Origin: Elusimicrobia bacterium LH_S2
GTDB taxonomy: Bacteria > CG03 > SLGR01 > JAGXOG01
Length of the DNA: 48,640 bases
Assembly: GCA_023660015.1 (NCBI GenBank)
Contig: JAGXOG010000005.1
Coordinates: 1 to 48,640, forward strand
Direction: 5' to 3'
This document shows, piece by piece, positions 46,994-48,640 of the stretch. Numbering within the stretch: the stretch's first letter is position 1; each line of letters opens with the position of its first letter. Both the position numbers and the translations under genes were made by a program. The notes under the pieces are model-generated. The model worked only from the letters and a program-made list of their open reading frames with translations, was not told the DNA's origin and made no database searches.

Positions 46994-47896
46994 ATGAAAG
47001 ATATTTTAATAACCGGGTCTAACGGTTTTATCGGGAGTCATCTTGCCGAAAGATTGATTGATGAAGGCCATAGGGTCTTTTGTATGATAAGAAAGACTTC
47101 GGATACTACATATTTGAAGGGATTGAATATAGAATACACTTATTGTAATTTTATGATTCCTGACACACTTCCCAGCGCTGTTGAAGGCAAAGATGAAATA
47201 TATCATCTCGGAGGTGTCCTCAGAGTGGCAAATAAAGAGCGATTTTACGATGTAAACAGTTCTGGCACCCGCAATCTCGTGAATGCGGTTAATAAGTATA
47301 ATCCGGATATTAAAAAATTTGTATATGTTTCTTCGCAGGCCGCCGCCGGTCCTGTGGGGAAAGGACCGGTATCTGATTACGGCAAGAGCAAAAAGATGGC
47401 TGAAAATGCAGTAAGAGAAATTAAAAATTATGTTATAGTGCGTCCGGTTCCAGTTTACGGCCCACGAGATAAAGATTTTTTAGCTCTATTTAAGATGGCC
47501 CGCAGTGGAATATTTTTAAAGCCCGTCCAATCTGGAAAATTGAGTTTTATACACGTAAAAGATTGTGTTGAGGGGATTGCTTCCACTATGCCCGCAGAAG
47601 AAAAATTTCTAAGTGACGGTAATGTCTATAGCTGGCAAGAAGTTGCAAATATTCTGAAAAAAGTTATAAAGAAAAGAGTGCACATTATAGTTTTGCCTGT
47701 TTTTTTAATGAAATTAGGGGGGGCTATAGGTACAACAGCATCTAAGGTTACGGGCAAGCCCGTAATTTTAAATAGTGACAAGGTAAGAGAAATGTTAGCG
47801 GATTGGGGGGTTAATGTTAATAGTAAGGCCGGCTATAGTTTATATGACGGTTTTTTGGATACATTCGACTGGTATAAAAAACACGGGTGGTTATGA
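46994..47896 (+). CDS. NAD-dependent epimerase/dehydratase (extended SDR)
   Basis: MKDILITGSNGFIGSHLAERLIDEGHRV..FVYVSSQAAAGP..YGKSKKMAE. Confidence 0.9.
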   Translation: MKDILITGSNGFIGSHLAERLIDEGHRVFCMIRKTSDTTYLKGLNIEYTYCNFMIPDTLPSAVEGKDEIYHLGGVLRVANKERFYDVNSSGTRNLVNAVNKYNPDIKKFVYVSSQAAAGPVGKGPVSDYGKSKKMAENAVREIKNYVIVRPVPVYGPRDKDFLALFKMARSGIFLKPVQSGKLSFIHVKDCVEGIASTMPAEEKFLSDGNVYSWQEVANILKKVIKKRVHIIVLPVFLMKLGGAIGTTASKVTGKPVILNSDKVREMLADWGVNVNSKAGYSLYDGFLDTFDWYKKHGWL

Positions 47897-47944
47897 GTAA
47901 GGAGATAACAATATAAAAGTCAAGTGAAGTTAAATAATTCAAAA

Positions 47945-47985
47945 AAGACATAAATCTCCTGTTTCCGCTGAAACGGATTTTAAAA
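47945..47985 (+). terminator. Hairpin downstream of the epimerase, probable terminator
   Basis: AAATCTCCTGTTTC-CGCT-GAAACGGATTTT with minor bulges, ending in a T run. Confidence 0.5.
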
Positions 47986-48103
47986 ACAGATATAAACATT
48001 AGAACTTTGACAATTAAATAACGCATACAATTAAAAACATTTGCGAGAAGGGTAGTTGGGCATCAAAAGTGCTCCCCGGTGAATCTCAGTATATAATAAC
48101 CCT

Positions 48104-48252
48104 GGCGATACGGACTTCCCTGAAAAGAGGGAGAGGTCGAACAAACTATCCGAAATTAGCTGAGAAGGGAGGGTATCGAAACTCCTTACCGAAGTTGTCC
48201 TGATAAAAGGACAGAGCTTAAGGAAAAATGTCGGATTACCCTCCTTCTCGGC
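48104..48252 (-). ncRNA. Candidate IS110 bridge RNA/seekRNA region (3' noncoding end)
   Basis: Long stem GCTGAGAAGGGAGGGTA (48159-48175)/TACCCTCCTTCTCGGC (48237-48252) enclosing TCCTTA/TAAGGA and TGTCCT/AGGACA with unpaired internal loops; adjacent stem-loop TCCCT/AGGGA with outer GATA/TATC. Confidence 0.45.
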
Positions 48253-48296
48253 AAACAGATTCAATTGTAGTGTTAAATAATTAATCATAGATTTAG

Positions 48297-48640
48297 TTAT
48301 TTGAAATTAGGATTTAATTTTACATTAAATTTATTCTCAATATCTTTTTTAATTTTATTTAAATAATTATCTTCGGAAACTAAAAGATTCGAAGAAAAAT
48401 TAGACAGTTTTTTGATAATAGTTTTATAGCAGGAAACAATGGACTCTTTTTCATTAAGGTTAAGATAATCTCTTACAGTAGGTGGATTGAAGAAAGATTC
48501 GGACTTCATCATGGCAAGAGATACTCTTACGAATTTGGAGCCAACAGCGAAGTTGACACAGCGAGGATGTTTGCCTCTATCTAAGAGTCTTTGACCGAAG
48601 GCAGCAAAATAAGGGCATCCTTTGTTACCTCTGGATTTTA
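48297..48640 (-). CDS. IS110-family transposase, C-terminal part (continues past the window edge)
   Basis: Minus-strand frame open to the edge: KSRGNKGCPYFAAFGQRLLDRGKHPRCVNFAVGSKFVRVSLAMMKSESFFNPPTVRDYLNL..; matches the IS110 C-terminal pattern (RL..RGK.P..A..AV..K..R...AM.K...F.P). Confidence 0.7.
   Translation of the reverse strand, partial: KSRGNKGCPYFAAFGQRLLDRGKHPRCVNFAVGSKFVRVSLAMMKSESFFNPPTVRDYLNLNEKESIVSCYKTIIKKLSNFSSNLLVSEDNYLNKIKKDIENKFNVKLNPNFK

What the first reader, a model, noticed from the sequence alone, without database searches (positions are those of the whole stretch)
48060..48640. IS110-family transposase tail followed by a strongly structured noncoding end: candidate bridge RNA/seekRNA
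Seen: the minus-strand ORF entering from the right edge has an IS110-like C-terminus. The ~400 nt after its stop holds no credible gene but has nested stems (17/16-nt arms at 48159-48175 and 48237-48252, then TCCTTA/TAAGGA, then TGTCCT/AGGACA), with internal loops on both sides, plus a second stem-loop (48104-48149). Established: IS110/IS1111 elements encode a guide RNA with programmable internal loops in a noncoding end; in the IS1111 group it is 3' of the transposase. Inference: this is such an RNA. Its guide loops, around ATCCGACATTTT/GTTTCGA on the minus strand, could be new specificities.
Basis: partly seen in the sequence, partly recalled or inferred. Interest (0 to 1): 0.68.

Follow-up and report, generated by a model that had tools for sequence, protein, structure and literature searches.

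The report
Guide-RNA transposon that targets gene starts
The window ends inside a small bacterial jumping gene of the known IS110 family that carries its own guide RNA, and that guide spells out the ribosome-binding site plus start codon of genes, which matches where the element has actually landed in this genome.

Summary
The finding is largely right. The minus-strand ORF at the right edge is the C-terminus of an IS110-family transposase; a sister copy in the same MAG is near full length (Pfam IS110 domains, IS621-like fold). The noncoding end after it runs from 48296 to 47905, and the hairpin at 48156-48255 folds far better than shuffles (z -5.0).

Copies of the element's ends (9 right, 5 left) reveal the target: 7 of 9 right ends abut AAGGAG, and all 5 left ends lie 7-9 nt before an ATG, 4 of them opening real genes. 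The element splits Shine-Dalgarno sequences (AAGG^AG-N5/6-ATG, core CT), antisense to the gene. A same-genus genome without the element has the empty site at this locus (TAAGGAGCTTAAATG).

About 50 relatives with the RNA upstream share this anatomy, and their guides covary with their own targets (0 of 5000 shuffles).

IS900 is already known to hit translation-initiation sites; a guide-RNA explanation for that habit is what is new. Donor guides, covariation of this RNA itself, and expression remain unproven.

The parts
48297..48640 (-). C-terminal part of the IS110-family transposase gene, cut by the window edge (113 codons to 48638)
   Evidence: 79% aa identity to the C56 sister copy, which has both IS110 Pfam domains
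47905..48296 (-). Noncoding right end of the element
   Evidence: Bounded by the stop codon and by nine right-end copies in the same MAG
48156..48255 (-). [quoted passage not shown]
   Evidence: Fold z -4.97 against shuffles; guide matches on both sides
48221..48230 (-). Proposed left target guide CAUUUUUCCU (left target plus core CU)
   Evidence: 10 of 10 match to the insertion sites at C36 and C48
48182..48188 (-). Proposed right target guide UAAGGAG (complement of core plus right target)
   Evidence: Matches TAAGGAG/AAGGAG at 7 of 9 right junctions
48196..48213 (-). Apical stem TGTCCT/AGGACA of the main hairpin
   Evidence: Read; part of the minimum-energy fold
48100..48152 (-). Second stem-loop, candidate donor-binding region (weak)
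   Evidence: Position after the first hairpin as in IS621; fold and donor guides not above chance
47918..47923 (-). TTGACT, -35-like half of a promoter completed in the circular form by TATATA of the left end (17-nt spacer)
   Evidence: Joining the C86 right end and the C56 left end
47903..47904 (.). Core dinucleotide AG (CT on the transposase strand)
   Evidence: Shared by both junction types and by the empty site
47899..47902 (+). AAGG, the outer half of the split Shine-Dalgarno target
   Evidence: Nine right junctions and the empty site in G001
46994..47896 (+). NAD-dependent epimerase gene upstream of the insertion; its operon partner (serine-palmitoyltransferase-like in G001) lies beyond the element
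   Evidence: Pfam Epimerase 3e-28; gene order in G001

Best explanation
This is the right half of an IS110-family insertion sequence whose 3' noncoding end encodes a bridge RNA. [quoted passage not shown] Together they specify TAAGG^AG-GAAAAATG, that is a Shine-Dalgarno sequence, its spacer and the start codon. The transposase-RNA complex therefore inserts the element, antisense, into ribosome-binding sites between AAGG and AG. Shown: element identity, ends, insertion sites, core, and the guide match in the DNA. Inferred: that the RNA is made, bound by the transposase and used as the guide, and that the region 48100-48152 recognises the donor.
For: Sister transposase with IS110 domains and IS621-like fold. 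Nine right and five left junctions define target and core; AAGGAG at six of the eight right ends other than the window's has P about 1e-20, the ATG spacing about 1e-7. Four of five left ends precede real genes. Empty site TAAGGAG-CTTAA-ATG in a same-genus genome at this locus. Hairpin z -4.97. Guides match independent sites, jointly in 2 of 5000 shuffles at 11+8 nt. Relatives with the same layout show guide-target covariation, 0 of 5000 shuffles, and stem covariation. Circle junction makes TTGACT-17-TATATA.
Against: Guide significance is moderate under looser cut-offs (95 of 5000 at 10+7 nt), and the segments were picked after inspection. Three of five left targets fit the guide poorly (4-6 of 10). 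Only one copy has the left half of the hairpin, so its covariation is untested. The relatives' covariance model does not match this RNA. Donor guides not found above chance. The only near full-length transposase has E33 in place of the first catalytic D, and alanine there abolishes IS621 activity (PMC11208158). No RNA data.
Confidence: 0.8

Rival explanations
1. A decayed copy: the noncoding end is the relic of a bridge RNA that no longer works, and the present copies are old, immobile insertions.
For: Copies differ by about 12-15%; C74 and C63 hold fragments; C56 has E33 in place of the first D; several left targets fit the guide poorly.
Against: Hairpin and ends are intact in the window copy; ends are near identical (97-100%) over the last 30-100 bp between most copies; many sites are occupied.
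Confidence: 0.2
2. Targeting is real but not RNA-guided: the transposase or survival selection confines insertions to ribosome-binding sites, and the guide match is chance.
For: The guide match is statistically moderate. Insertions inside genes are lost by selection, which would enrich intergenic sites.
Against: Selection does not place insertions at one exact base within AAGGAG in one orientation. IS621-type enzymes are RNA-guided (PMC11208160) and the relatives' guides covary with their targets.
Confidence: 0.08
3. A true IS1111-group seekRNA.
For: Noncoding region downstream of the transposase, the usual IS1111 position (PMC11187229).
Against: Guide order is of IS110 type; the transposase (444+ aa) is outside the 330-350 aa of IS1111; a 210-nt left end and no long subterminal repeat.
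Confidence: 0.05
4. The structure acts as plus-strand RNA, for example an attenuator in the interrupted operon.
For: The plus strand folds better (z -6.7 against -5.0) and the host operon runs in that direction.
Against: No terminator-like site. The guides have the strand and order of a bridge RNA on the minus strand, and the relatives encode theirs on the transposase strand.
Confidence: 0.05

Closest known systems
IS900 (Mycobacterium avium subsp. paratuberculosis, IS110 family)
   Same: Target CATGNNNNNNTCTCCTT (PMC8141618) is essentially CAT-N5/6-CT-CCTT found here: start codon plus Shine-Dalgarno, element antisense to the gene.
   Different: Host phylum; IS900 has an antisense ORF (hed) across the element, while no plus-strand ORF of 60 codons or more lies in the visible part here. 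No bridge RNA for IS900 was found in the literature searched.
IS621 / IS110 bridge RNA systems (PMC11208160, PMC11208158)
   Same: Fold, DEDD-like and SG motifs, CT core, 5' guide for the bottom strand and 3' guide for the top strand, promoter at the circle junction.
   Different: RNA lies 3' of the transposase; transposase 444+ aa instead of about 326; target is a translation-initiation site; first D is E in the one near full-length copy.
Upstream-RNA IS110 relatives in Lachnospiraceae and others (L061-L155)
   Same: Same target-hairpin layout; similar right terminus (CTTGACTTTTAATAGTTAGT-CT against CTTGACTTTTATATTGTTAT-CT); insertion at ribosome-binding sites.
   Different: RNA is upstream of the transposase; insertion leaves the Shine-Dalgarno on the gene side instead of splitting it; transposases about 30% identical; their RNA model does not match the window RNA.
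IS1111-group elements with seekRNA (PMC11187229)
   Same: Long noncoding region and RNA 3' of the transposase.
   Different: Opposite guide order, shorter transposase, long subterminal inverted repeats.

Membership tests
IS110 family | DEDD (RuvC-like) domain plus Transposase_20 domain with SG motif | tested here: met
   Sister copy C56: PF01548 and PF02371 over cut-off; E88, D128, D131, S343-G344 conserved, first D is E33. The window fragment itself lacks these residues.
IS110 family | Precise insertion at a sequence-specific target without duplication, core CT | tested here: met
   14 junctions and one empty site; one junction (C48) keeps two extra bases.
IS110 family | Promoter formed across the circle junction | tested here: met
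   TTGACT, 17 nt, TATATA by sequence; not shown to be active.
IS110 bridge RNA | Target-binding loop: 5' guide for the bottom strand, 3' guide for the top strand, core in both | tested here: met
   CATTTTTCCT and TAAGGAG on opposite sides of one hairpin; moderate statistics.
IS110 bridge RNA | Donor-binding loop matching the element's own junction | tested here: inconclusive
   Best matches not above shuffles.
IS110 bridge RNA | Covariation supporting the stems of this RNA | tested here: inconclusive
   Only one copy has both arms; the relatives' model (10 of 17 pairs with two-sided changes) does not match it.
IS110 bridge RNA | RNA expressed and bound by the recombinase | not testable with these tools
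   Needs small-RNA sequencing or copurification.
IS1111 group | Noncoding region downstream of the transposase | tested here: met
   392 nt downstream, but also about 210 nt upstream.
IS1111 group | Top-strand match 5' of the bottom-strand match | tested here: not met
   Order is reversed (definition in PMC11187229).
IS1111 group | Subterminal inverted repeats of 7-17 bp | tested here: inconclusive
   By eye only a short imperfect A+T-rich similarity between the ends (ATATAAAG / TATAAAAG).
IS900-type target | Insertion at ribosome-binding site and start codon, CAT...CT-CCTT | tested here: met
   IS900 motif from PMC8141618.

The most novel reading that the evidence does not exclude
A broad lineage of IS110 elements, spread over several bacterial phyla, is RNA-programmed to the Shine-Dalgarno/start-codon region. 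The guide RNA in effect copies the ribosome's own anti-Shine-Dalgarno logic, giving the element landing sites in front of many genes, and IS900's long-known preference is explained by such a guide.
Probability: 0.6. Interest if true: 0.68.

Novelty: new member of a known kind. Interest (0 to 1): 0.52.

Why it matters
It offers a concrete, testable reason why some IS110 elements (IS900 being the known case) land in front of genes: the guide RNA encodes the ribosome-binding site and start codon. It is also a natural example of a guide set against a generic site rather than one locus, and suggests that RNA position (5' or 3' of the transposase) and guide order are separable traits.

Tried and rejected
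Rfam scan of the region: nothing. Single-protein scans of genome and viral collections: no close relative. Covariance model of the relatives' RNA against the window: no match. Sequence alignment of the window RNA with the left end of the nearest relative (L061, Omnitrophota MAG): not above shuffles, although the hairpins look alike. Donor-guide search: not above chance. Second stem-loop as an independent structure: not significant. Empty-site check behind RNase E/G: gene order differs, uninformative. Search for the lost downstream gene in the own MAG: absent (the MAG is 67% complete). khpA query in the same-genus genome: no match. Literature search for bridge RNA with Shine-Dalgarno: nothing relevant. 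IS1111 membership was considered and rejected on guide order and transposase length.

Full report
What is in the window. The window is contig C86 of a 1.04-Mb, 130-contig MAG. Its right edge cuts a minus-strand ORF of 113 codons (48297-48638) that has no Pfam match on its own. The same MAG holds a near full-length sister on C56 (3-1334, minus), 88% identical over the shared 196 bp. That protein (444 aa before the contig ends) carries DEDD_Tnp_IS110 and Transposase_20 and hits IS621 in the PDB by sequence (3.5e-7). Its model (mean pLDDT 74) finds IS621 and ISCro4 as best folds (E from 3e-12 to 8e-11). Residues E88, D128, D131 and S343-G344 align with the DEDD/SG motif of relatives; the first D is E33.

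Ends and target. Searching the MAG with the noncoding right end and with the C56 left end recovered nine right ends and five left ends, many at contig tips as expected of a repeat that breaks assemblies. In gene sense, right ends read ...AAGGAG|ATAACAATATAAAAGTC (7 of 9; exceptions AAGAAG and TACCAG), and left ends read ...TTTATATACC|AG-N5/6-ATG (one of the five, C48, keeps two extra bases). Four of the five ATGs open recognisable genes: nitroreductase, an HTH protein, ribosomal protein S13 and a KhpA-type KH protein; C59 lies in a truncated frame. Chance is about 1e-20 for AAGGAG at six of the eight right ends other than the window's, and about 1e-7 for the ATG spacing. At the window's own locus, a same-genus genome lacking the element reads epimerase stop - TAAGGAG-CTTAA-ATG of a serine-palmitoyltransferase-like gene (L156; gene name by my reading). 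AAGGAG is therefore target, not element, and the insertion point is AAGG^AG. Read on the transposase strand the target is CAT-N5/6-CT-CCTT, with core CT as in IS621.

The RNA. The noncoding end spans 47905-48296. Its hairpin 48156-48255 has z -4.97 on the transposase strand (0 of 300 shuffles) and -6.7 on the other; the second stem-loop is not significant. The hairpin's 5' side contains CATTTTTCCT, the only CAT-N5/6-CT in the noncoding end, identical to left target plus core at C36 and C48. Its 3' side contains TAAGGAG, the complement of core plus right target. A joint match of this quality and order occurred in 2 of 5000 shuffles at 11+8 nt, 18 at 11+7 and 95 at 10+7. This test did not count the hairpin geometry, but I chose the segments after seeing them. 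Three other left targets (C56, C45, C59) fit the guide poorly (4-6 of 10), perhaps because those copies were placed by other RNA variants; C130 shows that RNA variants exist. The order, bottom-strand match then top-strand match, is that of IS621 and ISEc21, not of IS1111 elements (PMC11208160, PMC11187229).

Comparison with relatives. A scan of GTDB genomes with a five-member alignment gave 479 relatives, of which 80 were kept; 15 more came from viral contigs. Multi-copy relatives gave exact ends. They carry a 133-nt RNA upstream of the transposase, with a hairpin in which 10 of 17 consensus pairs show two-sided changes. Guides match their own element's flanks far better than others' (left 7.26 against 5.42 of 9; right 5.92 against 4.11 of 7; 0 of 5000 label shuffles). 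The left guide is often CCUCCU, and 26 of 50 junctions lie 6-15 nt before a start codon of a frame of at least 60 codons, against 155 of 1880 random positions. The right terminus resembles ours, and both circle junctions give TTGACT, a 17-nt spacer and a -10-like hexamer. The covariance model does not recognise the window RNA, so I claim shared anatomy, not proven RNA homology.

What is known. IS900 inserts at CATGNNNNNNTCTCCTT (PMC8141618), essentially this target, and was described as targeting translation initiation signals (Doran 1997, title as cited there). Bridge and seek RNAs are established for IS110 and IS1111 elements, and IS110 elements with a downstream noncoding region are known exceptions (PMC11187229). 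I found no paper linking a bridge RNA to the Shine-Dalgarno sequence, within an open-access library that misses most subscription journals. The element is thus a new member of a known kind; the new point is that the guide's sequence explains the start-site target.

Limits. Covariation of this RNA, its transcription, its binding and its donor loop are unproven. The left junction of the window copy is missing from the assembly, and the only near full-length transposase may be inactive (E33; alanine at the equivalent D11 abolishes IS621 activity, PMC11208158).

Noticed in passing
L064, L085, L103, L135, L140 (left junctions): In the upstream-RNA relatives the left end reads outward as CTATATAATACGAGGAGG before the gene's start codon, so insertion may leave the gene with a new -10-like box and an intact Shine-Dalgarno.
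   Followed up: partly
L070, L076, L094, L097, L106, L112, L116: A subgroup whose left guide and targets end in AAATTACT or AACTTACT, so not a Shine-Dalgarno target.
   Followed up: no
L027 1394-1416 (C56 left end): Terminator-like hairpin in transposase sense between the circle-junction promoter and the transposase gene.
   Followed up: no
C63:1-55 (L039) and C130 (L006 1-268): Two right ends with deviating flanks (TACCAG; AAGAAG). TACCAG resembles the element's own left end, and C130 carries a variant RNA with AAAGGAG as right guide.
   Followed up: partly
L030, L031 (C45, C36): Insertions lie in the ribosome-binding sites of rpsM (S13) and a khpA-type gene; how essential genes such as rpsM stay translated after losing AAGG is unexplained.
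   Followed up: no
L015, L025 (G051, single-contig genome): One copy of a relative sits before pdhB (left end) and another after pdhA (right end), suggesting that recombination between copies split an operon.
   Followed up: no
C56 transposase (L007 3-1334 minus): First catalytic Asp replaced by Glu (E33) in the only near full-length copy.
   Followed up: partly
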